64,000 bases of DNA. Origin: Acrocarpospora corrugata. GTDB taxonomy: Bacteria > Actinomycetota > Actinomycetes > Streptosporangiales > Streptosporangiaceae. Position 1 is the stretch's first letter, and each line of letters starts with the position of its first letter. Shown here piece by piece: positions 3,001-35,706 of the stretch. The stretch covers positions 124,001 to 188,000 of the forward strand of contig NZ_BLAD01000039.1 in assembly GCF_009687845.1 (NCBI RefSeq), in the 5' to 3' direction. Both the position numbers and the translations under genes were made by a program. The notes beneath the pieces were generated by a model. That model saw only the letters and a list, made by a program, of their open reading frames with translations, did no database searches and had not been told where the DNA came from.

Positions 3001-4312
3001 GCGGGCCGGTCAGCAGCCGGATCCCGTCGGCCTGCCAGTCCACCGGGGCGCCCTGGCCGGTCTGGCCGGTCGCGTCGTCCACGTGCAGGGTGCGGGGCAG
3101 CACGCCGTGCCGCATCGCCTGCACCATCTTGATCAGGCCGGCCACTCCAGCGGCGGCCTGGGTGTGGCCGATGTTCGACTTCACCGAGCCCAGCCAGAGC
3201 GGGCGGTCCTTGGCGCGGCCCTGCCCGTAGGTGGCCAGCAGCGCGCCCGCCTCGATCGGGTCGCCGAGCCGGGTGCCGGTGCCGTGCGCCTCGACGACGT
3301 CGATGTCGCGGGTGTCCAGCCGGGAGTCGGCGAGCGCCTGCTCGACGACCTTCTCCTGGGCGGGGCCGTTCGGGGCGGTCAGCCCGTTGCTGGCGCCGTC
3401 CTGGTTGACGGCGGAGCCGCGGATGACGGCCAGCACGCGGCGGCCGTTGCGGCGCGCGTCCGACAGCCGCTCCAGCAGCAGGATGCCGGCGCCCTCGGCC
3501 CAGGACACGCCGTCCGCGTCGGCCGAGAACGACTTGCACCGCCCGTCCGGCGACAGCGCGCGCTGCCGGGAGAACTCGACGAAGGAGTCGGGAGTGGCCA
3601 TCACGGTGACGCCTCCCGCGAGCGCCATCGTGCACTCGCCGCGCCGCAGCGCCTGCACCGCCAGGTGCACCGCGACCAGCGAGGAGGAGCAGGCCGTGTC
3701 GACCGAGATCGACGGGCCCTCCAGCCCGAAGGTGTAGGAGACCCGCCCCGGCAGCACGCTCGGCGCGCTCGACACCAGCAGCGTGCCCTCGACCCCTTCC
3801 GGCACCGCGCCGTCGGTGAACCGGGTGGAGTAGTCGCTGTACATGTTCCCGACGTAGACCCCGGTACGGCTGCCGCGCAGCGTGGCCGGGTCGATCCCGG
3901 CCCGCTCGAACGCCTCCCAGGACGACTCCAGCACCAGCCGGTGCTGCGGGTCGGTGGCCAGCGCGGTACGCGGGCTCATCCCGAAGAAGGCCGCGTCGAA
4001 GTCGGCCGCGTCGTACAGGAAGCCGCCGTGCCGGGTGTAGGACTTGCCCATCGCCTCCGGGTCGGGGTCGTACATGCCCTCGACGTCCCAGCCCCGGTCG
4101 GCGGGCATCTCGCCGATGGCGTCGCGGCCCGCGGTGACCAGGTCCCACAGGTCTTCCGGGCTGGTCACGCCGCCGGGGTAGCGGCAGGCCATGCCGACGA
4201 TCGCGATGGGCTCGTGCCTGCGGTCGTCGCTGTCGCTGAGCCGCTGCCGGGCTTCGGCCAACTCGACGATCGCGCGCTTGAGATATTCGCGCAGTTTGTC
4301 CTCAGTCGCCAT
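1..4312 (-). CDS. Type I modular PKS, KS-AT-DH-KR module (3' end cut by window edge)
   Basis: Second PKS of the assembly line, incomplete: only about 1437 N-terminal residues lie in the window. Order seen: a charged coiled-coil N-terminal docking segment (about residues 1-30); KS with active-site C208 in a DTACSSS context; AT with GHSVG (S663) and HAFH at 760-763, the malonyl-CoA signature; DH with HxxxGxxxxP starting at H960 and a HPALFD catalytic Asp motif; then a KR Rossmann start (TGGTGALG near residue 1365). The start ATG lies inside the end of the upstream PKS gene (11-nt overlap), so the two are translationally coupled and colinear. The domains imply addition of an acetate unit, ketoreduction and dehydration to an alkene. 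KR stereotype, ACP and any further modules lie outside the window. Confidence 0.95.
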
Positions 4313-13068: not shown

Positions 13069-13653
13069 ATGAGTGACCACCAGAACGCGCCGAACTCCAG
13101 AATTGCCGGCCCCCCATTCGATCTGATCTGGGCCGGCCTGGCCGGGACCTGGCTGGTCGTCGAGAGTGTGCTGTTCGGGGTGCGCGGGATGGATCCGGTG
13201 GTGTCGGCCGTCTGGGCGGCCGGGCTGGTGGTCGCCGGGCTCCTGGTCGTGACGAGGCGGGGCGAGCCGGAACTGGTGTCGGCGCTGCGGTGGGGTTCCT
13301 CGGTCACCGTGGCCGGAGGTGCGGCCGCACTCGCTATCGGTGGAAATTTTACGTTGTTTCTGGCGATGCATGCGCTGCTGGTGGTCGTGCTGTGCGCCGC
13401 GGTGCTCCGGCCGGTGGCCCGCCGTACCGACTGGGTGGCGTCCGGCCGGGTCAGGGTGCGGCTCACCTGGACCGTCGCCGGGACCTGCGCCGGCCTGATC
13501 GCGTTCAGCCTGATGCAGGATCTGCGGGGGTTGCCGCTGATCCATCCCGACGTGGCGAGCCTGGTCACGCTCGGGACCATGTTCGAGACGGCGGTCACCG
13601 TCGCCATCGCCGTGCTGTGGCGGGGGCGGCGGGAAACCGTCACGACCCGCTAG
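13069..13653 (+). CDS. Small integral membrane protein of unknown function
   Basis: A 194-residue hydrophobic protein with about five to six predicted membrane segments (around residues 18-36, 44-62, 73-88, 93-110, 128-147 and 160-185) separated by short polar loops; no catalytic motif is recognisable. A GGAGAAG Shine-Dalgarno precedes the ATG. The stop is eight bases before the condensation gene at 13662, so the two are probably co-transcribed. ORFs on the opposite strand here (12940-13643) lack a good ribosome site and read as low-complexity Arg/Pro-rich shadows. A role in export, self-resistance or holding an enzyme at the membrane is possible but not shown. Confidence 0.7.
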   Translation: MSDHQNAPNSRIAGPPFDLIWAGLAGTWLVVESVLFGVRGMDPVVSAVWAAGLVVAGLLVVTRRGEPELVSALRWGSSVTVAGGAAALAIGGNFTLFLAMHALLVVVLCAAVLRPVARRTDWVASGRVRVRLTWTVAGTCAGLIAFSLMQDLRGLPLIHPDVASLVTLGTMFETAVTVAIAVLWRGRRETVTTR

Positions 13654-13661
13654 GAGAATCG

Positions 13662-15032
13662 ATGCCCGTCGACGCCCCCCTCAGCCACGGCCAGCTGTTC
13701 AGCTGGCGCGAGATCGAGCGGTATCCGGACGATTGGATGCAGGACGCGAACCTCCCCATCGTCTCCGACCTGCGCGGGCTCCCGCTGGCCCGGGTCGAGA
13801 ACGCGCTGCGGGTGCTGATGGCGCGGCACGAGCCGCTGCGCACCACCTACCACCTCGTGGACGGGCAGCCGGTGCAGCGCGTGCACGAGACGGCGGAGCC
13901 GCCGATCGAGCGGGTGGACCGGGTGGTCCGCGACTGGGAGGACCCGGAGGACGTCAAGAACGAGCTCTGCGCGGTGCCGTTCGCGATGGAGGGCGGCCTG
14001 TGCTGGCGCGGGCAGCTGGTCACCACCAACGGGTCGCCGGTGTTCCTGGCGCTGTCCTTCTCGCACCTGATCCTGGACGTGTGGTCGATCAACCACCTGA
14101 CCGACCAGTTCGGCGCCCTGGTGGCCGATCCGGAGGCCGTCGCCGAGCTCGGGCCCTCGCCCACCGAACTGGCCCACGAGCAGCGGACCGACCTGTGGCG
14201 GGACCGGAAGGAGGCGTCCGAGCGGTACTGGCGGCGCACCCTCGGCGACGTCCTGGCCGACCCGCTGCCAACGCTGCCGGCCAAGGTGAAGCGCGACCGC
14301 CTGGAGGCGACCCTGCACTCCCATCGCCTCGGCGGGCTGGCCGCGCTGGCCGCCAGGAAGCTCGGCGTCACCGCGCCCGCGCTGGTGATGGCGCTGGTCG
14401 CGGCCGGTCTGGCCCGGCACACCAACACCGGCAAGGTGGCGATGAGCCTGATGGCCTCCAACCGGTTCGCGCCGGAGCACCACCACGTGATCGGCACGAT
14501 GAACCAGCTCATCCCGGTCGTCGCGACGGTCGATCCGGGGGCGCCGCTGAGCGAGCACGTCAAGCGCCTGCACTGGGCCGGGGCCAGGGCCTACCGGTAC
14601 TCGTCCTACGATTTCGACCGCGTCGCCGTACTCGCCGCCGAGGCCGCCGCGGAACGCGGCGAGGAACCGGCGCACGACTGCTGGGTGAACCAGCTGTTCC
14701 GCTGCTGGTTCAACTACGTGCAGCTCGATCGCCAGCCCTCCGACCCCGTCGCCAAGACCCCGGCCGAGCTGCTGTGGACGCCGCTGGCCCAGCAGTACGG
14801 CCAGCCGTTCCGGGTCAGGGTGTCGGTGATCAACGGCCGGACCAGCATCCTGATGCTGGCCGACCCGACGATCATCCCGGCCGAGGGCATGGCGGACATG
14901 CTGCGCACGATCGCCCTCGGCGTCCAGGTCGCCGCGACCGACCCGGAGACCAGCCTCAAGGACCTGTGGAACGCCGGCCACGAAACCCTGGCGCCGTCCC
15001 TGTTCCCGGCGGTCATCCCCATGCCGGAGTGA
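13662..15032 (+). CDS. Free-standing condensation-domain enzyme
   Basis: A 456-residue protein covering one NRPS-type condensation domain. Visible motifs are RHEPLRTTYH (residues 55-64) and SHLILDVWS, where H135 and D139 occupy the catalytic second His and the Asp of the HHxxxDG motif; the first His is Ser. The second subdomain is present, as expected for a full C domain, and no A or PCP domain is attached. The start is the ATG after AGGAGA, eight bases beyond the preceding stop. Such stand-alone enzymes form amide or ester bonds between carrier-bound acyl groups and amines or alcohols. With the amine-making trio next door, joining a polyketide acyl chain to an amine is a reasonable inference; the substrate is unproven. 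Confidence 0.88.
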   Translation: MPVDAPLSHGQLFSWREIERYPDDWMQDANLPIVSDLRGLPLARVENALRVLMARHEPLRTTYHLVDGQPVQRVHETAEPPIERVDRVVRDWEDPEDVKNELCAVPFAMEGGLCWRGQLVTTNGSPVFLALSFSHLILDVWSINHLTDQFGALVADPEAVAELGPSPTELAHEQRTDLWRDRKEASERYWRRTLGDVLADPLPTLPAKVKRDRLEATLHSHRLGGLAALAARKLGVTAPALVMALVAAGLARHTNTGKVAMSLMASNRFAPEHHHVIGTMNQLIPVVATVDPGAPLSEHVKRLHWAGARAYRYSSYDFDRVAVLAAEAAAERGEEPAHDCWVNQLFRCWFNYVQLDRQPSDPVAKTPAELLWTPLAQQYGQPFRVRVSVINGRTSILMLADPTIIPAEGMADMLRTIALGVQVAATDPETSLKDLWNAGHETLAPSLFPAVIPMPE

Positions 15033-15067: not shown

Positions 15068-16270
15068 TCACACGAGCACTTCGACCGGCGCCGGATGGCT
15101 GAGGAACCCCGTCGGGCTCGCCGTGAGGCCGTACGCGCCGGCCTGGAACAGGGCGATCAGATCGCCGATCTCGACTCTCGGCAGTTCCACCCGGTCGCCG
15201 AGCAGGTCGAGCGGTGTGCACAGGCAGCCGACCACGTTGACCGGCTCGTCCGGCGCCTCGCCCAGCCGGTTGGCCACGGCCATCGGATAGTTGCGCCGGA
15301 TCACCTGCCCGAAGTTCCCTGACGCCGCCAGCTGGTGATGCAGCCCGCCGTCCACGACCACGAAAGTCGTCCCCCGGGATTCCTTCCGGTCCACCACCCG
15401 GGTGATGTACACCCCCGCCTCGCCGACCAGATAACGCCCGAGCTCGATGACGACCCGGGCCCCCGGCAGCCGGGGAACGACGCGCTCGCGCATGAGCCGC
15501 GCCAGGTTGTCGCCGATCGGCTCCAGGTCGAGGGGACTGTCGCGGCGCGAGTAGGGAATGCCGAACCCGCCGCCCAGATTGACGTACCGCACGGGCGGCG
15601 ACAGGTCGGCGAGTTCGAGTATCAGGTCCACCGTGCGCCGCTGCGCCTCGCAGATGTCGTCCGCGCGCAGGTTCTGCGAGCCCGCGAACACGTGGAACCC
15701 CTGGAAGTCGACGTCGTCCCCCAGCCCGGCGAGCACCTTGGGCACCCGTTCCGCGTCGATCCCGAACTGCCGCGGCCCGCCGCCCAGGCGCATCCCCGAC
15801 CCGCGCACGGTGAAATCGGGATTCACCCGGAGCGCGATCCGGGCCGGAACCCCGGTGGCGGCGCTGATCGCGCGCGCCCTGGCCAGTTCGGTCTCCGATT
15901 CCAGCTCCACCGTCACGCCGGCCGCGATCGCCTGGGACAGCTCCTCGACGGTCTTGCCGGGCCCGGCGAAACTGATCCGGCCGGCGTGCGTCGGCGTGTC
16001 CAGCGCATGCCGCATCTCCTGCGCCGAGGCCACGTCGAAGCCGTCGACGAGCCCGCTCAGATGCTGGAGCAGCGCGGGCATCGGGTTCGCCTTGACGGCG
16101 TAGCTCAGCTGGATTCCGGCCGGCAGGGCGGCCCGGAGGGCGGCGACCCTGCGGGTGACGAGGTCGCGGTCGTAGGCGAAGAACGGCGTGCTCCCGATCC
16201 GGGCGGCGAGCCGCTCGACCGGGATTCCGCCGACGGTCAGCTGCCCGTCGCGGCGGCCCTGCCAGGTCAT
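15068..16270 (-). CDS. PLP-dependent decarboxylase, fold type III (DAP/ornithine decarboxylase family)
   Basis: A 400-residue alanine-racemase-fold decarboxylase. The PLP lysine is K60 in SYAVKANP; NLGGGFGIPY is the phosphate-binding glycine loop; GCLCTPLDLLG near residue 345 carries the cysteine that acts from the partner subunit in this family. Its ATG overlaps the ligase stop (ATGA). Gene order ACP, ligase, decarboxylase matches systems in which an amino acid is loaded on an ACP and decarboxylated there: BtrI/BtrJ/BtrK in butirosin and VinL/VinN/VinO in vicenistatin biosynthesis. The likely reaction is decarboxylation of an aminoacyl-ACP to an amine-bearing acyl-ACP. A free amino acid substrate remains possible. 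Confidence 0.9.
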   Translation of the reverse strand: MTWQGRRDGQLTVGGIPVERLAARIGSTPFFAYDRDLVTRRVAALRAALPAGIQLSYAVKANPMPALLQHLSGLVDGFDVASAQEMRHALDTPTHAGRISFAGPGKTVEELSQAIAAGVTVELESETELARARAISAATGVPARIALRVNPDFTVRGSGMRLGGGPRQFGIDAERVPKVLAGLGDDVDFQGFHVFAGSQNLRADDICEAQRRTVDLILELADLSPPVRYVNLGGGFGIPYSRRDSPLDLEPIGDNLARLMRERVVPRLPGARVVIELGRYLVGEAGVYITRVVDRKESRGTTFVVVDGGLHHQLAASGNFGQVIRRNYPMAVANRLGEAPDEPVNVVGCLCTPLDLLGDRVELPRVEIGDLIALFQAGAYGLTASPTGFLSHPAPVEVLV

Positions 16271-17730
16271 CGGGCCGCGCTCCGGCGGATCTCGGCGCGG
16301 TCGAACTTGCCGTTTCCCGACCGGGGCAGCGCGGTGGCGGTCACGATCCGGCGCGGCACCATGTACCGGGGCAGGTCGCGTTCCAGCGCCAGGCGCAGCC
16401 CGTCCGGAGCCGCGGCTTCGGTGAGCACCACGTGGAGCACGACGTGCTCCCCCAGGTCCTCGTCCGGTACGCCGACGGCGACGGCCTCGGCGACCAGGCC
16501 GGTCGCGTACGCCGCCTCCTCCACCTCGGTCGGGCTCAGCCGGTAGCCGGACGTCTTGATCATGTCGTCGGTACGGCCGACGAAGAAGATGAACCCCTCC
16601 TCGTCCCGGTAGGCCACATCGCCCGACCACACGGCGATCTCGTCGCCGCCGGGAGGAAACGGCCGGAACCGCTCCGCGGTACGGGCCGGGTCGTTCCAGT
16701 AGCCGAGCGACACCAGCGCCCCCCGATGCACGATCTCGCCTTCCTCGCCCGGGTCGCACTCCGAACCGTCCGCCCGCACGACCAGGACCTCGGCGTTCGG
16801 CACGGCCTTGCCGATCGAGCCGGGCCTGCGGTCGATCTCGGCGGGATCCAGGTAGGTGGACCGGAACGCCTCGGTCAGGCCGTACATCAGGAAGGGGGTG
16901 GCCTGCGGGAACGTCTCGCGCAGCCAGGCCAGTGTGGTCTTGGGCAGGCGTCCGCCGGTGTTCGCGAAATAGCGCAGGCCGCGCGTCGCCTCGGCGGGCC
17001 ACCGCTGCGTCGCGAGCTGCGCCCACAGCGGCGGCACGCAGGTCAGCGCCGTCACCCCGTGGGTGGCGCAGAGCCGGACGACCTCGCGGGGCAGCAGGTA
17101 GTTGACCAGCACCACGTGTGCTCCGGCCAGGAACGACGTGGTCAGCTGGCTCAGCCCGGCGTCGAAACTCAACGGCAGCGCCGCGAGGACCACGTCGTCG
17201 TGGGCGTGACCGAGGTAGCCGGCGACGCTCGCCGCGCCCGCGAGCAGGTTGCCGTGACTCAGCACGACCCCCTTCGGCGAGCCGGTGCTCCCGGACGTGT
17301 AGAGAATGCCCGCGATATCCGAAATATCGTGATCGACGGAGGAGGGCGGATCCGTCGTGACGACGTCCAGGTCTCCGATCAGCACCGTGCGCACAGAACC
17401 GCTCAGCGTGCGCGCCCGCTCCGGAGTGGTGATCAGCAGCGCGGCCGCACAATCCTCGATCACATACTCAACCTGCCGAGCCTTAAAGAGCGGATTTATC
17501 GGGACAAAGACGCCGCCGGCCGCTGCCACCGCGAACATCGCGACGACCGTTTCGAGCTGCTTCTCCGCATAGATCGCGACCCGGGCGCCAGGCTCCAGCC
17601 AGCGCAACCCCTCCGCCGCCCGCGCGACCCGCTCACGCAGCTCGCCATAGGTGAGCGTCACATTCTTGTAGGTGACCGCGGCGTGCTCGGCGGCCCCGAA
17701 CCCCAGCAGCTCCTCGAAGCGCGTCAGCAT
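16267..17730 (-). CDS. ANL-superfamily acyl/aminoacyl-ACP ligase
   Basis: A 487-residue adenylate-forming enzyme. Motifs in order: YTSGSTGSPKG (P-loop), MYGLTEAF, the SGD and GRTDDMIKTSGYR hinge region, and the C-terminal GNGKFDR with the catalytic lysine. It has no fused carrier domain, but an ACP gene ends three bases upstream and the decarboxylase gene overlaps its stop by 4 nt. It probably activates a carboxylic or amino acid as the AMP ester and transfers it to the neighbouring ACP. A similar ligase/decarboxylase/ACP trio is found in exosortase-associated loci. Substrate specificity cannot be read by eye. Confidence 0.9.
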   Translation of the reverse strand: MLTRFEELLGFGAAEHAAVTYKNVTLTYGELRERVARAAEGLRWLEPGARVAIYAEKQLETVVAMFAVAAAGGVFVPINPLFKARQVEYVIEDCAAALLITTPERARTLSGSVRTVLIGDLDVVTTDPPSSVDHDISDIAGILYTSGSTGSPKGVVLSHGNLLAGAASVAGYLGHAHDDVVLAALPLSFDAGLSQLTTSFLAGAHVVLVNYLLPREVVRLCATHGVTALTCVPPLWAQLATQRWPAEATRGLRYFANTGGRLPKTTLAWLRETFPQATPFLMYGLTEAFRSTYLDPAEIDRRPGSIGKAVPNAEVLVVRADGSECDPGEEGEIVHRGALVSLGYWNDPARTAERFRPFPPGGDEIAVWSGDVAYRDEEGFIFFVGRTDDMIKTSGYRLSPTEVEEAAYATGLVAEAVAVGVPDEDLGEHVVLHVVLTEAAAPDGLRLALERDLPRYMVPRRIVTATALPRSGNGKFDRAEIRRSAAR

Positions 17731-17733
17731 GGC

Positions 17734-17991
17734 TCAGAATCCGATCCGCGCCGCGTCCAGCAGGAACGACAAGGTCAGCCACAACGATCCCACCGTCGCG
17801 AACGTCTCCTCGCTGAGGATGTCGTCGGGCAGTTCGAGGTCGTACCCGTCCTCCAGGTCCACCATCAGCTGCACGACCCCCATCGAATCCAGCCCGAGCG
17901 AGGTGAGGTCGTCACCGGGGGTCAGGTCACCCGGCCCCGCGTACGGCAGATACCGGCGGAGAACGGCCTGGAACTCGTGAGGTATTTCCAT
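17734..17991 (-). CDS. Discrete acyl carrier protein (amine-unit ACP)
   Basis: An 85-residue ACP with phosphopantetheine serine S36 in LGLDSMGVVQL. I chose the ATG at 17991 because GAGGAG precedes it by 7 nt; a longer GTG start at 18006 would place the Shine-Dalgarno inside the coding sequence. It is the first gene of the ACP-ligase-decarboxylase set and is probably the carrier on which the amino acid is decarboxylated. It is divergent from the second condensation gene. Confidence 0.88.
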   Translation of the reverse strand: MEIPHEFQAVLRRYLPYAGPGDLTPGDDLTSLGLDSMGVVQLMVDLEDGYDLELPDDILSEETFATVGSLWLTLSFLLDAARIGF

Positions 17992-18082
17992 CGGAGGTCT
18001 CCTCACAATGCCTGAGCTGAATTACCCGTTCAGGGTCGTTTAATTCCGCGACAGGTGTCAAGCGGGAGCCCTGGCAGCTTTT

Positions 18083-18107: not shown

Positions 18108-18175
18108 GGCCGGCGCGGCGAGCCTATTCTCATTTAGCCTGAGTGGGCTGGACCGTTCAACCGTGGGAGGCCGGG

Positions 18176-19786
18176 TTGTCCGTTGTGAAGAACGCGAATC
18201 TCGGCTGGGGCCAGCGTTATATGTGGCTCCGCTATCACGACCTGCCGCCACACGCTCGCCACAATACACATATTATTCTGAAACTACAGATTCCGGTCGG
18301 CCTGACGATCCAGAACTGCCGGGCGATACTCAATCAGACGGCCCGCCGGCACGAGACGCTGCGCACCACCTACCACTTCGATCTCGACGGCGATCCGTAC
18401 CGGGTGGTGCGCCCGCCTGGCCCGTGTCCCCTCGTCGTGGTGTCCACCGAGGAGGACGGCACGCCGATGCCGGCCGAGGTGATGGAACGACTGGGCGGGG
18501 CCGAGTTCGACATCGCCGTGGACTGGCCGATCCGGACCTCCGTCATCACCACCGAGGGAGTGCCCCAGCAGCTCGTGCTGGTGCTGAACCACCTCGCGGT
18601 GGACATGTGGACGGTCACGGAGCTCCAGCGCGAACTACAGCTGAACTGCACGGCGGTGCTGGCCCGGCGGCTCGCCGCGATCGAACCTGTCCGGCATCGC
18701 CCGTCCGATCTGATCCGGTACGAGACGACCCTGGACCCGGGGCCGGCCTTGGCGTACTGGGAGAAGGAGATCGAGTCCATCCCACCGGACGCGTTCGGCG
18801 ACCGCCGCAGGCACGGCGTGCCGCCGGAGACCCGGCGGGCGACGCTGGTGTCCCCGGCCCTGCTGGCCGCCTCGCGGCGGATCGCGGCCCGCCAGAAGGT
18901 GTGGCCGTCGCAGGTGCACCTGGCGGCCTACACGGCGCTGATGGCCGCCTATACCGGCGGCCCGTCCTTCGACCACCTGACGTTCACCGGAAACCGCGAG
19001 AACGGCCCGTACGCTACGGTCCTGACCTGCATGTTCTCCCCGCTGCTCCTGCGCGTGGACGTATCGGACGACCCGACCTTCACCGAGCTGCTCGCCCGGG
19101 TCGGCGACCGGTTCGAGCAGGCGCGCGAGCACGCCTACGTCCCGTACGACGAGGTAGCCGAACTGCTGGCCAGAAAGGGCGCGCGACTGGCGTCGGAGTT
19201 CAACTTCATCAAGCAGGTCACCCTCGAGTCCCGCGCGCGGCGCAGCCGGATCACCTGGCAGACGCCGCCCGAGGATCACGGCGCCGACACCTACGTCCGG
19301 GTCGACGAATGGAAGGACGCCGTGGTGATCGCGCTGAGCGCCGCGTCGTCGGTCATGGACGCGGACTCCATCGAACGTTTTCTGCGCGCCTGGGAGACCA
19401 CGATCCTCAGCTACGACGCGACGCCGGACGCCCTGCGCACCAGCGACATCGCCGCGCTGGCCGGCTTCGCCCCCGCGCCGCCGCCCAGCCGGCGCACCGA
19501 ATCACGAAATATCCCGGACAAGGCGGCGGAGGAGGTCCTCGCGGCCGTCGTCGGGCAGGCGAACGGGCTCGCCGAGGTCGATCCGGCCCAGAGCTACACC
19601 GGCACAGGGGGCAGGGTCCTGCGGATTCCGCGGGTGCTGGCTCTGCTCCGGAGCCACGGGTGGGAGGGAGTCACCGTCCACCAGCTCACTGGTGCCGCGC
19701 CATTGAGCGCACTGGCCTGCCTGCTCGCCCCAGCGGCCAGCGTCACGCCATCTCCAGAACCGCTACAACCCGGAGTCCGACCATGA
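18176..19786 (+). CDS. Condensation enzyme with a serine-less carrier-like C-terminus
   Basis: A second free condensation enzyme (536 residues from the TTG start). It has RRHETLRTTYH (58-68) and NHLAVDMWT, with H139 and D143 as catalytic His and Asp. After the C domain, residues about 445-520 resemble a PCP (helix I, VDPAQSY, GG motif, then helices), but the attachment motif reads GGRVL, so V481 replaces the serine and R480 the Asp. It therefore cannot carry a phosphopantetheine arm. I prefer the TTG at 18176 because GGGAGG precedes it by 5 nt; the GTG at 18143 is an alternative. Its stop overlaps the next start (ATGA). The N-terminal codons include a low-GC run near 18260-18290. Confidence 0.85.
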   Translation: MSVVKNANLGWGQRYMWLRYHDLPPHARHNTHIILKLQIPVGLTIQNCRAILNQTARRHETLRTTYHFDLDGDPYRVVRPPGPCPLVVVSTEEDGTPMPAEVMERLGGAEFDIAVDWPIRTSVITTEGVPQQLVLVLNHLAVDMWTVTELQRELQLNCTAVLARRLAAIEPVRHRPSDLIRYETTLDPGPALAYWEKEIESIPPDAFGDRRRHGVPPETRRATLVSPALLAASRRIAARQKVWPSQVHLAAYTALMAAYTGGPSFDHLTFTGNRENGPYATVLTCMFSPLLLRVDVSDDPTFTELLARVGDRFEQAREHAYVPYDEVAELLARKGARLASEFNFIKQVTLESRARRSRITWQTPPEDHGADTYVRVDEWKDAVVIALSAASSVMDADSIERFLRAWETTILSYDATPDALRTSDIAALAGFAPAPPPSRRTESRNIPDKAAEEVLAAVVGQANGLAEVDPAQSYTGTGGRVLRIPRVLALLRSHGWEGVTVHQLTGAAPLSALACLLAPAASVTPSPEPLQPGVRP

Positions 19787-20673
19787 GTGAAGTGTTCGCA
19801 GAGACCATAGCCAAGTCCCACCAGCTCGTCGGCTCTGAGCAGGAGCTCCGCGCCGCCATCGACCGCGAACTCGCATCGGCCCCCCTGACCGAACTCGTCG
19901 TCATGGGCGGCCATTTCATGCTGTTCGAGGACGAGGACAGCGGCGCACTCGTCCCCGGCGTCATGGAGGCACAGTCCTCCACCCTCATGCGCGACCGGAT
20001 CGCTGGCCGGGTGGGCATCTTCCCGGCCTACTCCTGGCAGCTCTCAGTCGACCTGATCACGGCATACGCGAAGCTCGTCAAGGACGCCAAGCTGCTGCTC
20101 CTCATCAACGACTGGCAGTACGTCCCCACCGGCGGCCGGCCCGCCAGCACGCTCCGAGCCGAGTTCTTCGAGAGCTTCACCGGCCTGCCGGACGGCTACC
20201 AGCAGATCCTGCGCGCGGCCGGGCTGGACGCGCGGAGTCTGCTGCCCAGCCGCAAACACCCGCTGGCGTTCCCGGAGACGTGGCTCAAGTACCGCTTCCA
20301 GAAGGCCGCCGACAAGTTCGTCAAGCAGGGCAGGCTCGAAAAGCGGGTGCTGGAGTCCGGCGCGAAGGACACCGAGGTCGCGTTCCTGGACGAGGCGGGC
20401 AACTACCGCACGCTGATCAGTTGCGGCATCACCGGCTGCGCCGGCGAGATCACCGAGATGATCTCCGAGGTGTACCAGGCCGGCTACCGGGCCATCGTGA
20501 TCTTCGCGCCGGGCGAGTGCCTGGCTCCCGTACAGACCGGGGTCGAGATCGCGCTCAGTCTCTACCGGCTCACCGGCATGGTCGTCGTGATCGCCGACCC
20601 GGGCGGCAGCGGCGAGATGTCCACCGACGAGATCTACTCAAAACTGGTGACGGTCAGCACCTTCCGGAGCTGA
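19783..20673 (+). CDS. Unrecognised cysteine-containing protein paired with cysteine desulfurase
   Basis: A 296-residue soluble protein that I cannot place in a family. It is coupled to the condensation gene by an ATGA overlap and ends 10 bases before the desulfurase gene. The N-terminal half alternates helices and strands (LTELVVMGGHFMLF, residues 36-48; KLLLLINDWQY, 103-113); the middle is basic; the C-terminal half has a Rossmann-like alternation with three cysteines, C214 and C219 in SCGITGCAGE and C246 in APGEC. No signal peptide or membrane segment is visible. Position beside a desulfurase suggests a sulfur acceptor or transferase, or an adapter for it. That is inference from context only. 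Confidence 0.75.
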   Translation: MSEVFAETIAKSHQLVGSEQELRAAIDRELASAPLTELVVMGGHFMLFEDEDSGALVPGVMEAQSSTLMRDRIAGRVGIFPAYSWQLSVDLITAYAKLVKDAKLLLLINDWQYVPTGGRPASTLRAEFFESFTGLPDGYQQILRAAGLDARSLLPSRKHPLAFPETWLKYRFQKAADKFVKQGRLEKRVLESGAKDTEVAFLDEAGNYRTLISCGITGCAGEITEMISEVYQAGYRAIVIFAPGECLAPVQTGVEIALSLYRLTGMVVVIADPGGSGEMSTDEIYSKLVTVSTFRS

Positions 20674-20683
20674 GGGCGGGACG

Positions 20684-21862
20684 ATGGACGTCATTTACCT
20701 GGACAACTGCGCCACCACCCGGGTGGACGAAGAAGTGCTCGACGCGATGCTCCCGTACCTGCGGGAGGAGTTCGGCAACCCGTCCTCCCCGCACCTGCTG
20801 GGCAAGCGGGCCCGCCGGGCGGTGGACGCGGCCACCGAGTCGGTCGCCGGACTGCTCGGCGCCGATCCGGCCGGCATCGTGTTCACCTCGGGCGCGACCG
20901 AGAGCAACAACATCGCGCTGCTCGGCGTGTTCGGTCACGGCGACCGCGCCCCGGTCAACGCGGTGTTCTGCCCCACCGACCACAAGTCGTCGCTGTCGAT
21001 CGCCCGCGCGCTGCGCGAACGCGGCGTCGGCATCAGGACCACGGCGGTCCGGGCCGACGGCGTGGTCGACCTCGCCAGGTTCGCCAACCTGCTCGACTTC
21101 GACACCCGGGTGGCCACGGTGGCCTGGGTGAACAGCGAGATCGGCACGATCCAGCCGGTCCGCGAGATGGCCGCGCTCTGCCACGAGAGCGGCGCGCTGC
21201 TGCACGTCGACGCCGCTCCGGCGGCGGGCCGGATCCCGATCGACGTGGTCGGCACGGCCGTCGACACGCTGGCCATGTCCGCCCACAAGATCGGCGGCCC
21301 GAAGGGGATCGGCGTCCTGTGCATCCGGCCGGAGATCCGCCGCAGGATCCGCCCCATCACCCACGGCGGCGGCCAGTACGACCTGCGCAGCGGCACCATC
21401 CCCACCCACCTGGTGGTCGGCCTCGGCAAGGCCTGCCAGCTGGCCGCGGCCCGGATGGCGGAGGACGGCGAGAAGGTCGCGGTGCTGCGCTCGATCGCGA
21501 TGGAGCTGCTCACCCGCCGGATTCCCGGCCTGCGGATCAACGGCCACCCGCGGGCCGGCGTCCCGCACGTGCTGAACCTGGTGCTGCCGGGGGTGCGCGG
21601 CGAGAGCCTGGTGGCGAGCCTGCCGTCGGTGGCGCTGTCCACCGGATCGGCGTGCAACTCCGACTCCCAGGAGCCCTCACCGGTGCTCACCGCGATCGGG
21701 GTGAGCGCCGAGGATGCCAACAGCTCCATCCGGATGTGCCTGAGCCCACGCATGACGGCCGAGGAGCTGGTCAGGGGGCTGAACCTGGTCTGCGACCGGG
21801 CTCGCGGCCTGGCCGGCGTGGTGGTGGCGAGGCGTGCGGCCGACGGCGTCGCCGTACTCTGA
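20684..21862 (+). CDS. Cysteine desulfurase (NifS/IscS family, PLP)
   Basis: A 392-residue class V aminotransferase-fold enzyme. The N-terminus YLDNCATT, the PLP lysine K202 in SAHKIGGPKG and the persulfide-forming C324 in STGSACNS are all present, and length is normal for the family. It mobilises sulfur from L-cysteine as an enzyme persulfide. No IscU, SufB or ThiI-type partner lies in the window, so the acceptor may be the unknown protein immediately upstream. Within a biosynthetic cluster it suggests a sulfur-containing product or thiolation chemistry; a housekeeping copy captured here is the alternative. Confidence 0.93.
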   Translation: MDVIYLDNCATTRVDEEVLDAMLPYLREEFGNPSSPHLLGKRARRAVDAATESVAGLLGADPAGIVFTSGATESNNIALLGVFGHGDRAPVNAVFCPTDHKSSLSIARALRERGVGIRTTAVRADGVVDLARFANLLDFDTRVATVAWVNSEIGTIQPVREMAALCHESGALLHVDAAPAAGRIPIDVVGTAVDTLAMSAHKIGGPKGIGVLCIRPEIRRRIRPITHGGGQYDLRSGTIPTHLVVGLGKACQLAAARMAEDGEKVAVLRSIAMELLTRRIPGLRINGHPRAGVPHVLNLVLPGVRGESLVASLPSVALSTGSACNSDSQEPSPVLTAIGVSAEDANSSIRMCLSPRMTAEELVRGLNLVCDRARGLAGVVVARRAADGVAVL

Positions 21863-21911: not shown

Positions 21912-22904
21912 TCACGCGCCGCTGGCCAGGAATTTGCGGGCCGCCTGCACCCCGGCCTGGAACCTGCTGGTGGCGTCCAGGTCGCGCATCAGGGTGGCGA
22001 TGTGCCGGCGGCAGCTCCGTACCGACATGCCGAGTTTGCGGGCCACCACCTCGTCGGTGTAGCCCTTCGCCATCAGCCCGGCGATGGCGTGCCGCAGGTC
22101 GTCGGCCACGTTCGCGTAGCCGGAGTCGGCGCTCTCCAGCGGCATCGCGGTGTCCCACAGATGGTCGAACAGGTCGAGCAGGAACCTGACGATGCCGTCG
22201 TTGTGCACCCGCGCCACGTTGGTCTCGCCGTCGGCCAGGCCGAACAGCACGACCAGCGACCGGTCGAAGACGACCGCGGAGCGGGGGATGTGACTGACCG
22301 TGCCGATCGCGGCGCCCGCGTCGGTGAGCTGCTTCAGCTTCATCCGGGTGGACAGGTCGGCCCGGTTCCGGTGCCGGCAGATGATCCGCACGGTGACGCC
22401 GCGCGCGAGCAGCGGCAGGTACGCCTGCGCCAGCTCCTCGGCGTCCTCCTCACTGGACTGCAGAACCAGCACCTCGGTACGGCAGGCGTCGCCGGCCATC
22501 TTCAGAAAGCCGCGCACCTCCAGCGACCCGACCAGATACTCGATCGGCGACGGCGCCGAGGTGGGGCCGCGGTAGTCCTCCCGGAACACGTCCTTGATCT
22601 GGTCGATCAGCTCGCGCCGCTGGTAGATCTCCCGCTCCACCGAGGAGACCAGCGCGTTGGCCGCGACCTGCGGGTCCACCGGGATGAACCGGCGGGCCGC
22701 CCCGTCCACGGCGCGTAACAGGCGGTTCTCGACGAGCTGGTCCACCGCCTCGTTCAGCTCGTGCATGCCGATGCCGAGCTCGACGGCGGCCACATCCAGG
22801 ACGTCGATGGCCCCGTTCCTGGTCGCGTAGCGGTAGACGCCGGCGACGTTGGCGCCACCGGCGCGGACGGAATCGGAAAGCCACCTGGTGGTCGAATTCA
22901 TCAT
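21912..22904 (-). CDS. TrmB-like / LuxR-type HTH transcriptional regulator
   Basis: A 330-residue regulator. The N-terminal third resembles a winged-helix unit (IDVLDVAAVELGIGMHELN), the middle a PLD-like sensing domain of TrmB-type regulators (EVLVLQSSEE, RGVTVRIICRH, VVFDRSLVVLFG), and the C-terminus a LuxR HTH (GYTDEVVARKLGMSVRSCRRHI). It has no receiver or kinase domain. It is the last gene of the 18-gene minus-strand operon, 11 bases after the exporter genes. It may sense the product or a sugar-like ligand and control export or biosynthesis; the target is unknown. The tandem ATGs at 22904 and 22901 are equally plausible starts. Confidence 0.82.
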   Translation of the reverse strand: MMNSTTRWLSDSVRAGGANVAGVYRYATRNGAIDVLDVAAVELGIGMHELNEAVDQLVENRLLRAVDGAARRFIPVDPQVAANALVSSVEREIYQRRELIDQIKDVFREDYRGPTSAPSPIEYLVGSLEVRGFLKMAGDACRTEVLVLQSSEEDAEELAQAYLPLLARGVTVRIICRHRNRADLSTRMKLKQLTDAGAAIGTVSHIPRSAVVFDRSLVVLFGLADGETNVARVHNDGIVRFLLDLFDHLWDTAMPLESADSGYANVADDLRHAIAGLMAKGYTDEVVARKLGMSVRSCRRHIATLMRDLDATSRFQAGVQAARKFLASGA

Positions 22905-22915
22905 GTGCTGTCTCC

Positions 22916-24058
22916 TCAGAGGATTCTCGTGCGTCGGCTGAACAGGACCAGGGACAGGCTCAGCAGGACGGCGGCCATGACGGCCAGTACGGCGACGTCG
23001 AGCAGCACGTCGCCGAGCCCGGTGCCGGGCCGGGACAGAGTCAGGAGCGCGTCCATTCCCCACAAGTGCGGGAACAGCCGCCCGATGGCGTTGAGCGTGT
23101 CGCCGGCGGCCTCGCTGGGCCACAGGCAGCCGCCGAGCATGCCGAGCACGATGCCGAGCGGCGGCCCGATCGCGGACGGCTGCGCGGAGGAGCGGACCAG
23201 GCTGCCCATCAGAATCGCGGCGCCGGTGGAGACCAGCGCGAACACGCCGACGACGGTGGCGACGCCGAGCGGCTGGCCCCAGGAGACGCCGAACAGCAGG
23301 GAGCTCACCACCATGATCAGCACGGCTTGGGCGGCGGCCACGATGAACCGGCTGAGCGCCTCGCCGAACAGGACGGCGCCGCGCCGCACCGGGGCGGCGA
23401 AGGCCCGCTGCAGCATGCCGATGCGGCGGCTCTCGGCGAGCGCGGCGGCGACGGCCATGGAGTTGATGAAGGTGAACAGCAGCAGGTTGGCCGGGGCGGT
23501 GTAGGCGAACCCGCGCGGCGTGCCGGACGCGGTCGAGGAGTTGACCACGTCGACATCGGCCGAGGCGGCCTCCGCCTTCCGTACCAGCGCGGCGGCCTCG
23601 GCCGGGGTGGCGCCGGCCGAGGTGGCGGCGCGGGTGGCTTCGATGACGGCCGCGACCTTGCCGACCGCGACGTCGACGGCGCTGCGCGCGGCCATGCCGC
23701 TGCCGTTGGACTGCGTCATGACCAGCTCGAATTTGGTCGAGCCCGGCGGGATGACGACCCCGGCGGCCAGCGCGCCCGCCCGCACTCCGGCCCGCAGTTC
23801 CGCTTTGCCGGCGACTGCGGTGATCTCCAGGTCGGGGTGCGCGCGCAGTTCCCGCAGGACGGCGGCGGCCACCGGGTCGAAGTCCTGGGCGACCACGCCG
23901 ACCGGCAGCCGGGACGCGGCGGTGCCGCCGCCCAGCGCCATGCCGACGAAGATGATGCTGACGAACGGCATCACCACGATGAAGAACAGGCCGACCCGGT
24001 CGCGGGAGTGGCGGCGCAGGTTGGCGGCGACGAGCGCCCAGACAGGGTGCGGTCTCAT
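22916..24058 (-). CDS. ABC-2 type transporter permease
   Basis: A 380-residue membrane protein with one N-terminal membrane helix (VGLFFIVVMPFVSIIFVG), a large extracytoplasmic domain (about 50-190) and five C-terminal helices, the usual ABC-2 exporter permease layout. Its start overlaps the preceding permease gene by ATGA. With the second permease and the ATPase it forms a DrrAB-type exporter, probably for the cluster product and so also a self-resistance factor. Confidence 0.9.
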   Translation of the reverse strand: MRPHPVWALVAANLRRHSRDRVGLFFIVVMPFVSIIFVGMALGGGTAASRLPVGVVAQDFDPVAAAVLRELRAHPDLEITAVAGKAELRAGVRAGALAAGVVIPPGSTKFELVMTQSNGSGMAARSAVDVAVGKVAAVIEATRAATSAGATPAEAAALVRKAEAASADVDVVNSSTASGTPRGFAYTAPANLLLFTFINSMAVAAALAESRRIGMLQRAFAAPVRRGAVLFGEALSRFIVAAAQAVLIMVVSSLLFGVSWGQPLGVATVVGVFALVSTGAAILMGSLVRSSAQPSAIGPPLGIVLGMLGGCLWPSEAAGDTLNAIGRLFPHLWGMDALLTLSRPGTGLGDVLLDVAVLAVMAAVLLSLSLVLFSRRTRIL

Positions 24059-25233
24059 CCGAGCAGTCCTTTCCTGAAACCCATCGCGGACAGCCCGAAG
24101 GCGACCACGGCGATCGCGCACAGCACGCCGATCGGCGCGGCCACCGAGGCCAGCCCCGCGCCGGAGCCGGCCAGCCCGGTCAGCCCGGTGGTGGTCCAGG
24201 CGTTCGGGGTGAACAGGGCGAGCTTCTGGAGCACGTCGGGCAGGCTGTAGAGCGGGACCAGGCTGCCGCCGAAGAACGCGGCCACGAACGAGATCACCAT
24301 GATCACTCCGTCCGCCTGGGCGTCGGTCCTGGCCCGGCTGGCGACCAGCATGGTGATCGCGGTGGCGGCCAGCACGTGCGCCAGCAGGAGGGTGAACACG
24401 GCCACCGGGTCCCCCCAGCTGGAGCCGAAGATCAGCACCGAGGACGCCCAGGTGACGCAGACGCTGACCATGGCCAGGCCGAACCCGACGACGGCCTTGC
24501 CGGCGATCGGCACCCAGGCGTGGATCGGTCCGGCCCGCATCCGGTCCAGGGTGCCCTGCTTGCGTTCGATCAGCAGGCTGCGGAAGGACGCGCCGACCAC
24601 GAAGAAGGCGAACAGCGCCGCCATCCCCGCGCCGTAGTAGACCGACAGGTCGACCTTGCCGCCGGCCATCGGGTCGTTCGCCAAGGTCAGGGCGGGCCCG
24701 CCGGCGCCGTTGCGCTCCACGAACTCCTTGACCTCAGAAGCGGGCACGCCCGCGTCCAGGGAGGCGCGGACCGCGAGCGTGCGGGCCCGCACCAGGGCGG
24801 AGATCCGGTCCACGACCGCGTTCGCGACCACTCCGGCCAGCGGCGTGTCCGCCGAGGTCAGCACGCCGACCTGGCCGCCTTCGCCGGCGCCGACGCTGGT
24901 GCTGAAGCCCGCGGGGAACACGATCGCGGCCCCGATGTCGCCGGCGTCCAGGGCGGTCTGGGCCTGCTCGCGGCCGGGCAGGTCGCGCAGCGTCAGCACG
25001 CCTTCGAGCTCGGTGGAGGCGGTGAGCTCCCGCCGGACGCCGGCCGGGAACTCGCCGCCGTCCAGGTCGACGAAGCCCACGGTGGCCCGCAGCGGCGGGT
25101 CGTCGCCGCCGAGCGCCACGCCGAACAGGGTGGCCATGGCCACCGGCACGACGATCGCGATGACCAGGGCGGTCCGATCCCGGATCCGGGTGCGGAGCTC
25201 CAGGGCGCTCACGGTGAGAAGCGGTCGCAACAT
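24055..25233 (-). CDS. ABC-2 type transporter permease
   Basis: A 392-residue paralogue of the following permease with the same layout: one N-terminal helix (TALVIAIVVPVAMATLFGVAL), an extracytoplasmic domain and a bundle of C-terminal helices. One base separates it from the ATPase gene, and its stop overlaps the next permease start. The two permeases probably form a heterodimer. Confidence 0.9.
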   Translation of the reverse strand: MLRPLLTVSALELRTRIRDRTALVIAIVVPVAMATLFGVALGGDDPPLRATVGFVDLDGGEFPAGVRRELTASTELEGVLTLRDLPGREQAQTALDAGDIGAAIVFPAGFSTSVGAGEGGQVGVLTSADTPLAGVVANAVVDRISALVRARTLAVRASLDAGVPASEVKEFVERNGAGGPALTLANDPMAGGKVDLSVYYGAGMAALFAFFVVGASFRSLLIERKQGTLDRMRAGPIHAWVPIAGKAVVGFGLAMVSVCVTWASSVLIFGSSWGDPVAVFTLLLAHVLAATAITMLVASRARTDAQADGVIMVISFVAAFFGGSLVPLYSLPDVLQKLALFTPNAWTTTGLTGLAGSGAGLASVAAPIGVLCAIAVVAFGLSAMGFRKGLLG

Positions 25234-25234
25234 G

Positions 25235-26173
25235 TCAGTCCCTGAGCGTGCTGCCGGTGAGGTGCAGGAAGGTGGCCTCTAGGTCGGGTTCGACGACCTC
25301 CACGGCGGTGACGGTGGCGATGCCGTCGACCGTGGAGATGATCGCGGGCAGCAGGTACCGGCCGCCTTCGGCGATCAGCCGGACCGACCCGGCCGAGGTG
25401 CGGACCGCCTCGGTGACGCCGCCCACGCCGTGCAGCTTGGCGAGCGCGGTCTCGACGTCGCCGTCCAGGGTCAGCTCGATCCGGTCGACGCCGCCGACCA
25501 GCTCGATCAGCTCGTGCCGGGTGCCCTCGGCGACGATGGCGCCGTGGTCGATGATGGCGACCCGGTGGCAGAGCCGCTCGACCTCCTCCATGTAGTGCGA
25601 GGTGTAGAGCAGGGCCATGCCGTCGGCCACCAGGCGTTCGACGCCGTCCAGGATGGACTTGCGGCTCTGCGGGTCGACGCCGACCGTGGGCTCGTCCAGG
25701 ATGAGCAGCTCGGGGCGGTGCAGCAGGGCGGCGCCGATGTTGATGCGCCGCTTCATGCCGCCGGAGTAGGTGTCGAGTTTGGCGTCGGCACGGTCGGCGA
25801 GCCCGACCAGGTCGAGCACCTCCTCGACGCGCCCGCGCAGCGCCTTGCGCGGGAGGCCGAACAGGCGGCCGAAGAAGCGCAGGTTCTCCCGGCCGGTCAG
25901 GTCCGGGTAGAGGGCGATCTCCTGCGGAACGTAGCCGATCTTCGCCTTGGCCGCCATGGGCTCGGCCGCCAGGTCGGTGCCGCCGACCACGACCGTGCCG
26001 GTGTCGGGCTTGAGCAGGCCGACCAGCATGGAGATCGTGGTGGTCTTGCCGGCGCCGTTGGGGCCCAGCAGCCCGTACGCCTCACCCGGGGCGATGGTGA
26101 ATCCGACGTCCCGGACCGCGATCGCGCCGCCGTAACGCTTGCTGAGGTTCGCGCAGGTCAGCGTGTTGGTCAT
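25235..26173 (-). CDS. ABC transporter ATP-binding protein (DrrA-like)
   Basis: A 312-residue ATPase with Walker [11 protein letters not shown], signature YSGGMKRR, Walker [13 protein letters not shown] and a switch His ([14 protein letters not shown]), followed by the C-terminal extension typical of drug-export ATPases. The start is the ATG overlapping the beta-helix gene stop (ATGA). It energises the two ABC-2 permeases. Confidence 0.95.
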
Positions 26174-27183
26174 GACCGCCACCCGGCCAGTTCCACGGGG
26201 TCGCCGTTGGCGGCGAGGTTGCCGGCGAAGGTCTGGAGTCCCGTTTCGACGCCGAGCTGGTAGTCCAGCGGGGTGTTGCCGGTGACCCGGTTCCAGAGGA
26301 TGTGGTTGGCCACCGCGTCGTCGCCGCCCCAGCCCTTGGACGAGCCCATCACGAACCCGGCGCCCATCACGGACGGGCCGCTGGGGTGGTTGTCGTGTAT
26401 GTGGTTGTCGACCACGCTGACCCGCTCGGTGCCGATCAGCGCGATCCCCACCCCCGAGATGGGCGGGCCGGCCGCGCCCAGCGAACCGGGGTCGTCGCCG
26501 CCGGCGGCCAGGTCGTTGCCGTGCACGTCGTTGCCGGCGACCAGGCAGTCCCTGACCCCGCCGTCCGGCTCCCCGTCGTAGGTCTGGTTGAGCAGCATCA
26601 GCCCGATCGCGTTGCCGTGGCTGGTGTTGCGCAGCACCCGTACGCCGCTGGAGTTGTCGACGAACACGCCGAACGCGTTGGCGAAGGTCTCGTTGCCCTC
26701 AATGAGGGCCGCACCGGCGCAGAAGCTGACCGCGACACCCGCGTACTGGCTGCCGGAGGCCCGGCAGCTCACCACTTCGCAGCCGGTGCTCTCCCGCACG
26801 TAGACTCCCCAGACCGCGTTGTCCACGACCGTCACATCCCGTACGGCGAGGCCGGTGACGGAGTGGGCGTAGACGCCGGCGCCGGAGAAGCCGCGCACCG
26901 AGAGCCCGGTGACGGTGAGGTCGCGGACGCCGTGCGCGACGACGCCGGAGACCACGTCCTCACTCGCGTCGTGCAGTTTGGGCATGTCGGCGCGCACCCC
27001 CGGCCCGGGGACCAGCACCGCCCCCTCACCGTGCAGGGTCACCCCGTCATGCCTGATCCAGACGCTTCCCGGGTACGTCCCCGGGGCGAGCAGGATCGTC
27101 GCGCCGGGGCCCGCCTCGTCCAGTGCGTCCTGGATCGACTCACCGGGCCGGACTGTTCGGTTTCCGGACATCGTTATGGACAT
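26170..27183 (-). CDS. Right-handed parallel beta-helix repeat protein
   Basis: A 337-residue protein that starts like NosD/pectate-lyase-type beta-helices (SIQDALDEAGPGATILLAPGTY) and continues as about ten PbH1-like coils, with repeated patterns such as GVYAHSVTGLAVRDVTV, GVYVRESTGCEVVS and GVFVDNSSGVRVLRN. No signal peptide is visible, which is unusual for secreted beta-helix lyases and points to a cytoplasmic role. Its start overlaps the PPTase stop by 10 nt and its stop overlaps the ABC ATPase start, so it is embedded in the biosynthetic operon. Possible roles include an epimerase, lyase or cyclase on a carrier-bound intermediate; none is shown. Confidence 0.85.
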   Translation of the reverse strand: MSITMSGNRTVRPGESIQDALDEAGPGATILLAPGTYPGSVWIRHDGVTLHGEGAVLVPGPGVRADMPKLHDASEDVVSGVVAHGVRDLTVTGLSVRGFSGAGVYAHSVTGLAVRDVTVVDNAVWGVYVRESTGCEVVSCRASGSQYAGVAVSFCAGAALIEGNETFANAFGVFVDNSSGVRVLRNTSHGNAIGLMLLNQTYDGEPDGGVRDCLVAGNDVHGNDLAAGGDDPGSLGAAGPPISGVGIALIGTERVSVVDNHIHDNHPSGPSVMGAGFVMGSSKGWGGDDAVANHILWNRVTGNTPLDYQLGVETGLQTFAGNLAANGDPVELAGWRS

Positions 27184-35679: not shown

Positions 35680-35706
35680 GCTGGTCTCCTTACCTGGCGG
35701 TCCCGA

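What the first reader, a model, noticed from the sequence alone, without database searches (positions are those of the whole stretch)
19783..21862. Unknown three-cysteine protein coupled to a cysteine desulfurase within the cluster
The desulfurase has K202 and C324. The 296-residue protein just upstream (C214, C219, C246) matches no family I know and is translationally linked to the condensation gene. Sulfur may be delivered to the product by a route not built on ThiS-like or SH-domain systems, none of which appear here.
Basis: partly seen in the sequence, partly recalled or inferred. Interest (0 to 1): 0.65.

Follow-up and report, generated by a model that had tools for sequence, protein, structure and literature searches.

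The report
Two-gene sulfur-transfer cassette, unknown product
A previously uncharacterised protein with three unchanging cysteines is encoded next to its own dedicated sulfur-releasing enzyme in bacteria from several distant groups, and the pair probably builds a small sulfur-containing building block or antibiotic by a route not yet described.

Summary
A 296-residue protein (C214, C219, C246) overlaps the upstream condensation gene by ATGA; a desulfurase (K202, C324) follows 10 bases later. It is not family-less: Pfam LPD16, of unknown function, matches 20 of 20 relatives scanned. AlphaFold models of two orthologues resemble the class I aminoacyl-tRNA-synthetase core (VIA-align Z 14.2 and 15.7; Foldseek TM only 0.36-0.42), yet HIGH, KMSKS and PP-loop patterns occur in 0 of 35 sequences. 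The cysteines, H44 and NDWQY are invariant in 35 of 35.

The desulfurase gene follows directly in 34 of 34 loci outside the window, in actinobacteria, Bacilli, Pseudomonas, Xenorhabdus and Brucella, and forms its own clade. Outside actinobacteria the pair often travels with an EamA exporter (5 of 8 contexts) or a D-Ala-D-Ala ligase (4 of 8), and on Priestia plasmid NZ_CP085444 also alanine racemase and permease: reminiscent of D-cycloserine self-resistance.

Best reading: a dedicated sulfur-relay pair. The desulfurase passes sulfur to the three-cysteine protein, which places it on an amino-acid-like substrate; here the product would feed a polyketide/peptide line, elsewhere it may be an alanine antimetabolite. 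Sulfur transfer, substrate and product are inferred.

The parts
19783..20673 (+). 296-aa LPD16-type protein with predicted class I aaRS-like core and three invariant cysteines (C214, C219, C246), H44 and NDWQY motif
20684..21862 (+). dedicated cysteine desulfurase, PLP lysine K202, persulfide cysteine C324, subfamily-specific SACN loop
18143..19786 (+). stand-alone condensation-domain protein (C2), stop overlaps the start of the 296-aa gene; its own start codon is uncertain
   Evidence: in 26 of 26 actinobacterial loci
13650..15032 (+). second stand-alone condensation-domain protein (C1), start uncertain
   Evidence: Pfam Condensation; in 24 of 26 actinobacterial loci (the other two, L008 and L011, start too late at a contig edge; the 25th hit counted, in L008, is a cross-hit to C2)
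17734..18006 (-). stand-alone carrier protein (DSMG motif by eye)
   Evidence: in 25 of 26 loci
16267..17730 (-). adenylation enzyme (AMP-binding; TIGR03098 above cut-off)
   Evidence: at 60% identity or more in 10 of 26 loci
15068..16270 (-). PLP decarboxylase of the ornithine/DAP decarboxylase fold (TIGR03099 above cut-off)
   Evidence: in 10 of 26 loci, two of the rest (L008, L011) not judgeable
21912..23123 (-). regulator with weak LuxR-type HTH match (below cut-off), start uncertain
   Evidence: in 25 of 26 loci
22916..24121 (-). ABC-type permease (named by eye)
   Evidence: in 25 of 26 loci
24055..25233 (-). second ABC-type permease (named by eye)
   Evidence: in 25 of 26 loci
25235..26182 (-). 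ABC transporter ATPase (Walker A by eye)
   Evidence: in 25 of 26 loci
26170..27183 (-). NosD-like repeat protein (named by eye)
   Evidence: in 25 of 26 loci
4302..12749 (-). modular type I polyketide synthase of the same cluster (named by eye)

Best explanation
A two-protein sulfur-transfer unit. The desulfurase takes sulfur from cysteine as a persulfide on C324 (inferred from conserved catalytic residues). It hands it to the adjacent LPD16-type protein (inferred from the constant pairing), whose three invariant cysteines hold it as a persulfide relay or on a [4Fe-4S] or metal site (inferred). That protein has a class I aaRS-like core (predicted, two orthologues) and places the sulfur on an activated amino-acid-like substrate, giving a small thio-amino acid (inferred). 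Having neither a HIGH nor a KMSKS pattern it may take a pre-activated donor, such as an aminoacyl-carrier protein or aminoacyl-tRNA, rather than make its own adenylate. In this window the coupled condensation enzyme would then join that unit to the polyketide/peptide chain. In the free-standing operons the product would be exported and would interfere with alanine/D-alanine metabolism.
For: Desulfurase directly downstream in 34 of 34 loci (median gap 9 bases, max 124, measured from the aligned start). The pair occurs in Actinomycetota, Bacilli, Gamma- and Alphaproteobacteria and on two Priestia plasmids. Partner desulfurases form one clade, 100/100, apart from 19 other desulfurases (E up to 1e-40) of nine of the same genomes; pairwise distances of the two families correlate, r 0.96 over 595 pairs and 0.79 over 21 non-actinobacterial pairs. 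H100, K202, C324 in 35 of 35, and N325 in 35 of 35 against 0 of 12 other desulfurases. C214, C219, C246, H44, NDWQY, GGSGE in 35 of 35. Fold: best Z 14.2 and 15.7; the 50 rows listed in each comparison are class I aaRS or MshC; the top viral-library match is also an arginine-tRNA ligase. Three-cysteine [4Fe-4S] sulfurtransferases are known: TtuA and CxxC-C MnmA (PMC8584467, passages). EamA exporter in five contexts, D-Ala-D-Ala ligase in four, alanine racemase and AlaP as annotated on a Priestia plasmid.
Against: No HIGH, KMSKS or PP-loop pattern in 35 of 35 (narrow patterns), so the activation chemistry is unexplained. Foldseek TM-scores to ArgRS are only 0.36-0.42 with large rmsd. No sequence-level link to aaRS: phmmer against the PDB found nothing relevant and my profile comparisons were flawed. 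In Caldalkalibacillus and Xenorhabdus no exporter or ligase was found beside the pair with the queries used. None of nine neighbour proteins from other loci, ligase and racemase included, matches in the window or 40 kb to its left. No product is known.
Confidence: 0.45

Rival explanations
1. The desulfurase only builds an Fe-S cluster or other sulfur-containing cofactor in the 296-aa protein, which then does non-sulfur chemistry; the product has no sulfur.
For: Three invariant cysteines with a conserved histidine are compatible with a cluster or metal site; a distant relative keeps equivalents of C219, C246 and the GH with no desulfurase recognised by eye beside it.
Against: A dedicated, co-diverging desulfurase subfamily is unusual if general Fe-S assembly would serve; no scaffold or carrier gene was recognised by eye beside the pair in the eight loci read.
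Confidence: 0.22
2. The 296-aa protein is a cysteine-handling ligase like MshC or CysRS: the cysteines (with H44) bind zinc that grips cysteine, an aminoacyl or cysteinyl group is transferred, and the desulfurase acts later on a cysteine-derived intermediate.
For: After the ArgRS rows, CysRS and MshC are among the next (Z 11.5 and 10.9; 12.4 and 11.9), tied with MetRS and GlnRS. Coupled condensation enzyme and carrier protein suggest amino-acid chemistry. aaRS-like enzymes are known in natural-product pathways (PyrN, PMC8664883, passages).
Against: HIGH and KMSKS patterns in 0 of 35; ArgRS, not CysRS, is the best fold match.
Confidence: 0.18
3. The pair thiolates tRNA or serves general metabolism and sits in biosynthetic loci by accident.
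For: Three-cysteine sulfurtransferases that act on tRNA are known (PMC8584467, passages).
Against: Rare: leaving out the genome on which each search was centred, 0 of 395 genomes of the phylum, 1 of 397 and 1 of 368 (the last only a distant relative) of two other classes. It lies with the coupled condensation gene in 26 of 26 actinobacterial loci and elsewhere beside exporters or signalling genes.
Confidence: 0.06

Closest known systems
Class I aminoacyl-tRNA synthetase catalytic core (ArgRS; also CysRS, MetRS, MshC)
   Same: Predicted fold: about 200 residues superpose with ArgRS at 3.4-3.8 A, Z 14.2 and 15.7 in two orthologues
   Different: No HIGH or KMSKS pattern (0 of 35), only 296 residues, three invariant cysteines, constant desulfurase partner; low Foldseek TM-score (0.36-0.42)
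Three-cysteine sulfurtransferases of the PP-loop group (TtuA, CxxC-C MnmA, LarE homologues)
   Same: Three conserved cysteines, cysteine desulfurase upstream in the sulfur path (PMC8584467, passages); that PP-loop enzymes and class I aaRS share the HUP fold class is recalled, from no call
   Different: No SGGxDS PP-loop (0 of 35); Cx4C...C instead of CxxC...C; genomic context of small-molecule biosynthesis
LPD16 (Pfam PF18830)
   Same: Matches 20 of 20 members scanned, best E 9.2e-9; RefSeq names the Priestia relative LPD16 domain-containing
   Different: The window protein scores 24.3 against a cut-off of 27 and only over residues 100-193; LPD16 was named from polyvalent proteins of conjugative elements (PMC5512222, one passage)
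D-cycloserine cluster self-resistance (DcsI ligase, DcsJ membrane protein)
   Same: A D-Ala-D-Ala ligase and a membrane protein beside biosynthetic genes (PMC6100412, two passages; here)
   Different: I did not search for dcs biosynthetic genes; the pair is not part of that cluster as I recall it, and the product is unknown
IscS/NifS/DndA cysteine desulfurases
   Same: Fold family, PLP lysine, persulfide cysteine
   Different: Separate clade, SACN loop, below the cut-off of each of the 25 NCBIfam models listed

Membership tests
Cysteine desulfurase (IscS/NifS group) | PLP lysine and persulfide cysteine in SAC loop | tested here: met
   K202 and C324 in 35 of 35 partner proteins
Cysteine desulfurase (IscS/NifS group) | Score above a named NCBIfam cut-off | tested here: not met
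   Best 330.7 bits against 548 for NF010611
Class I aminoacyl-tRNA synthetase | Rossmann-type catalytic core | tested here: met
   Two predicted models, VIA-align Z 14.2 and 15.7 to ArgRS; Foldseek TM-scores are low
Class I aminoacyl-tRNA synthetase | HIGH and KMSKS signatures | tested here: not met
   0 of 35 sequences by narrow patterns HxGH, HxxH and K[MFLI]S[KRN]; true synthetases can also deviate from these (recalled)
PP-loop sulfurtransferase (TtuA/TtcA/MnmA/LarE) | SGGxDS PP-loop | tested here: not met
   0 of 35
PP-loop sulfurtransferase (TtuA/TtcA/MnmA/LarE) | Three cysteines holding a [4Fe-4S] cluster | not testable with these tools
   Three invariant cysteines; the cluster needs spectroscopy
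LPD16 | Pfam gathering score | tested here: not met
   Window protein 24.3 bits against 27; that 20 of 20 members match at E up to 0.01 suggests a divergent branch
ThiS-dependent sulfur incorporation | ThiS-like carrier encoded in the cluster | tested here: not met
   Five ThiS matches in the genome, none on contig C39
Polyketide sulfur insertion by an SH-type domain | SH-type domain in the polyketide synthase | not tested
   The polyketide synthases were not scanned
D-cycloserine-type pathway | Product is a D-Ala antagonist | not testable with these tools
   Only resistance-like neighbours seen, outside actinobacteria

The most novel reading that the evidence does not exclude
A new class of sulfur-inserting enzyme: a class I aaRS-like core stripped of its usual ATP motifs takes persulfide sulfur from a dedicated desulfurase and turns an activated amino acid (aminoacyl-carrier protein or aminoacyl-tRNA) into a thio-amino acid. 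In free-standing, in some cases quorum-linked, operons that compound is itself an antibiotic against alanine racemase or D-Ala-D-Ala ligase; in actinobacteria the same module was recruited into a polyketide/peptide assembly line.
Probability: 0.25. Interest if true: 0.85.

Novelty: new variant of a known kind. Interest (0 to 1): 0.6.

Why it matters
Routes that put sulfur into natural products are few, and those known mostly use ThiS-like carriers, PP-loop enzymes or PKS-borne domains (from general knowledge). A two-gene cassette spread over several phyla, with an unassigned aaRS-like acceptor, would be a further route and gives a ready genome-mining handle. The resistance-like neighbours outside actinobacteria point to a testable target, alanine/D-alanine metabolism, for an unknown small antibiotic.

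Tried and rejected
Sequence-level aaRS link: phmmer of the window protein against the PDB gave only chance-level hits (best xanthine dehydrogenase, 0.077). Profile comparisons with ArgRS and CysRS built from fetched loci are not valid tests, because several reference rows were read in wrong frames or orientations; they showed nothing and I do not count them.

Viral or mobile origin: no relative in 50,697 phage records or, with the peptide patterns used, in viral contigs; 2 of 72,556 plasmid records, both Priestia. LPD16 by its own Pfam model in 321 genomes rang nowhere, the 14 controls and the Xenorhabdus genome that does hold a relative included, so it says nothing. A distant relative (L050, E 4.1e-4) keeps GH and three cysteines near the same places, has no Pfam match up to E 0.001, no desulfurase recognised by eye beside it, and no plasmid relative.

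Actinobacterial resistance gene: nine neighbour proteins of other loci (ligases, racemase, transporters, ATP-grasp, methyltransferase, radical SAM, PLP enzyme) have no tblastn match up to E 1e-3 in the window or 40 kb to its left.

Literature: open PMC library only; no bioRxiv, few subscription journals. Listings (25 of 56 papers listed; 15 of 19 listed; none found) showed no paper on such a pair; (LPD16) gave one relevant paper, of which I saw one passage. The Herbidospora genome survey (PMC4599437, passages) excluded single-domain genes and its main text does not hold the word desulfurase.
Full report
The observation. The 296-residue frame (19783-20673, +) starts inside the stop of the condensation gene (ATGA) and is followed after 10 bases by a desulfurase (20684-21862, +). 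The window lies in contig C39 of a 9.27-Mb genome; its nearest relatives by this gene are Acrocarpospora species.

It is real and conserved. One scan of genome contigs gave 34 loci: 26 actinobacterial (L002-L026, L034), plus Pseudomonas TH31, Halalkalibacter, Paenibacillus, Caldalkalibacillus, two Xenorhabdus, Brucella pecoris, and a truncated copy in Pseudomonas guariconensis (L035). Two Priestia plasmids were added by tblastn. That scan used exact peptide patterns, so more distant relatives would be missed. The family is rare: leaving out the genome on which each search was centred, 0 of 395 genomes of the phylum, 2 of 4 others of the genus, 1 of 397 in the class of Halalkalibacter and 1 of 368 in that of Xenorhabdus, the last a very distant relative at E 4.1e-4.

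The pair is constant as far as seen. In 34 loci with a complete gene (33 and one Priestia plasmid, L038) the desulfurase gene lies directly downstream, median gap 9 bases measured from the aligned start. The truncated copy cannot be judged; L036, L037 and L039 repeat others and were not counted. In nine genomes searched with the window's desulfurase (E up to 1e-40), the best match is the cluster partner and the 19 other desulfurases are 30-41% identical to it. A maximum-likelihood tree of 35 partners and those 19 puts the partners in one clade, 100/100; the program warns of long branches and of joins between them, and some of the 19 rows are partial. Distances within the two families correlate (r 0.96, 595 pairs; 0.79 over 21 pairs among seven non-actinobacterial loci); no control for relatedness was made, so this shows joint inheritance, not contact.

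Residues. Across window plus 34 loci, C214, C219, C246, H44, N109-Y113, E222, E245 and G274-E278 are identical in 35 of 35. Partners keep H100, K202, C324 and N325 in 35 of 35; N325 is in none of 12 other desulfurases (the other 7 of the 19 had been read in the wrong orientation and were dropped from that count).

Family and fold. NCBIfam gives nothing up to E 1. Pfam LPD16 matches 20 of 20 members, in the window protein over residues 100-193 and below cut-off. AlphaFold2 on 19 relatives: pLDDT 84.4, pTM 0.86. A second prediction, with the most diverged complete orthologue (about 50% identical) first: pLDDT 89.3, pTM 0.89. Foldseek ranks ArgRS first for both (1.5e-4; 1.3e-5), with TM-scores of only 0.36-0.42 by query length and large rmsd; the best match in the viral library is an arginine-tRNA ligase too. 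VIA-align gives Z 14.2 (209 residues, 3.8 A) and 15.7 (201 residues, 3.4 A); the 50 listed entries in each case are class I aaRS or MshC, above the typical background of 7-8 that the tool states. By secondary structure, H44 lies in the first core strand, P81-Y83-W85 where HIGH would be, NDWQY at the end of the second strand, C214/C219 after the third, E245/C246 after the fourth, GGSGE where KMSKS would be (the mapping is my inference from fold topology, no coordinates were seen). So the invariant residues would line the usual active-site rim, but HIGH, KMSKS and PP-loop patterns occur in 0 of 35.

Contexts in actinobacteria. Of 26 loci, the pair and the second condensation protein (C2) are in 26; carrier protein, regulator, two ABC permeases, ATPase and NosD-like protein in 25 each, the missing one being L011 or L023, which end early at contig edges. 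The first condensation protein (C1) is in 24: one search counts 25, but the hit in L008 is a cross-hit to C2. The decarboxylase is in 10 of 26, and the adenylation enzyme at 60% identity or more in 10 of 26; L008 and L011 cannot be judged, and in the other 14 a different adenylation gene (29-31%) stands on the other strand. The pair (66-91% and 67-94% identity) is more conserved than its coupled condensation protein (48-82%).

Contexts elsewhere. Counting eight (two Pseudomonas, Halalkalibacter, Paenibacillus, Caldalkalibacillus, Xenorhabdus, Brucella, Priestia), an EamA exporter lies close by in five: Pseudomonas TH31, Halalkalibacter, Paenibacillus, Brucella and Priestia. A D-Ala-D-Ala ligase lies close by in four: Pseudomonas TH31, P. 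guariconensis, Brucella and Priestia; in Brucella one of two ligases may be the housekeeping gene. The Priestia plasmid adds ComX with genes that look like comQ, comP and comA, a carrier protein, amino acid:[ACP] ligase, an acyl-CoA-dehydrogenase-like protein, an ATP-grasp ligase, alanine permease and alanine racemase (annotation; Pfam/NCBIfam). The Pseudomonas TH31 locus has a LuxI-type synthase just upstream. Caldalkalibacillus shows the pair alone, with under 600 bases of upstream sequence; Xenorhabdus has a methyltransferase next to it.

Mechanism. Shown: pairing, conservation, dedicated desulfurase clade. Predicted: the fold. Inferred: sulfur moves from C324 to the three-cysteine protein; the acceptor is an amino-acid-like molecule; the free product hits alanine/D-alanine metabolism. 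The last point rests on ligase, racemase, permease and exporter neighbours, as in the D-cycloserine cluster, where a ligase and a membrane protein are involved in self-resistance (PMC6100412, passages). The three-cysteine pattern recalls TtuA and CxxC-C MnmA, in which three cysteines hold or are linked with a [4Fe-4S] cluster (PMC8584467, passages). An aaRS-like activator in a natural-product pathway is known from PyrN (PMC8664883, passages). By the motifs tested the protein is a standard member of neither family.

Rivals kept open: a cofactor-only role for the desulfurase, and a zinc-bound cysteine ligase. Against all: no product is known, and no chemistry was tested.

Verdict. The sulfur-relay reading is the best supported but not shown.

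Noticed in passing
window 28429-38394: A second biosynthetic block beside the cluster: SnoaL-like, acyltransferase, alpha/beta hydrolase, KS-type protein, GcvT-like, FabA-like dehydratase, carrier protein (by eye), ketoreductase; parts of it are seen in other actinobacterial loci too.
   Followed up: no
window 15068-18006: Adenylation enzyme and decarboxylase match above cut-off two models named for exosortase A systems (TIGR03098, TIGR03099), next to a carrier protein; in 14 of 26 actinobacterial loci the adenylation gene is a different one and the decarboxylase is absent.
   Followed up: partly
L033 5429-8234 and L035 1827-4860: B12-binding radical SAM protein (TIGR04434 above cut-off in L033) with a cystathionine-lyase-like PLP enzyme and a D-Ala-D-Ala ligase beside the pair: perhaps another alanine-pathway antimetabolite module.
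   Followed up: partly
L050 1129-1974 (-): Very distant relative with GH and three cysteines at near-equivalent places, beside a sodium-symporter-like gene (named by eye) and with no desulfurase recognised nearby.
   Followed up: partly
L033 8495-9708: Two transposase-like frames (by eye) between the PLP gene and the pair in Brucella pecoris.
   Followed up: no
L035 4910-5404: The relative in Pseudomonas guariconensis is cut short (164 codons, in-frame stop, near the contig end).
   Followed up: no
window 13650-15032 and 18143-19786: Both stand-alone condensation proteins have altered active-site motifs by eye (SHLILDV and NHLAVDM in place of HHxxxDG), keeping the second histidine and the aspartate.
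   Followed up: no
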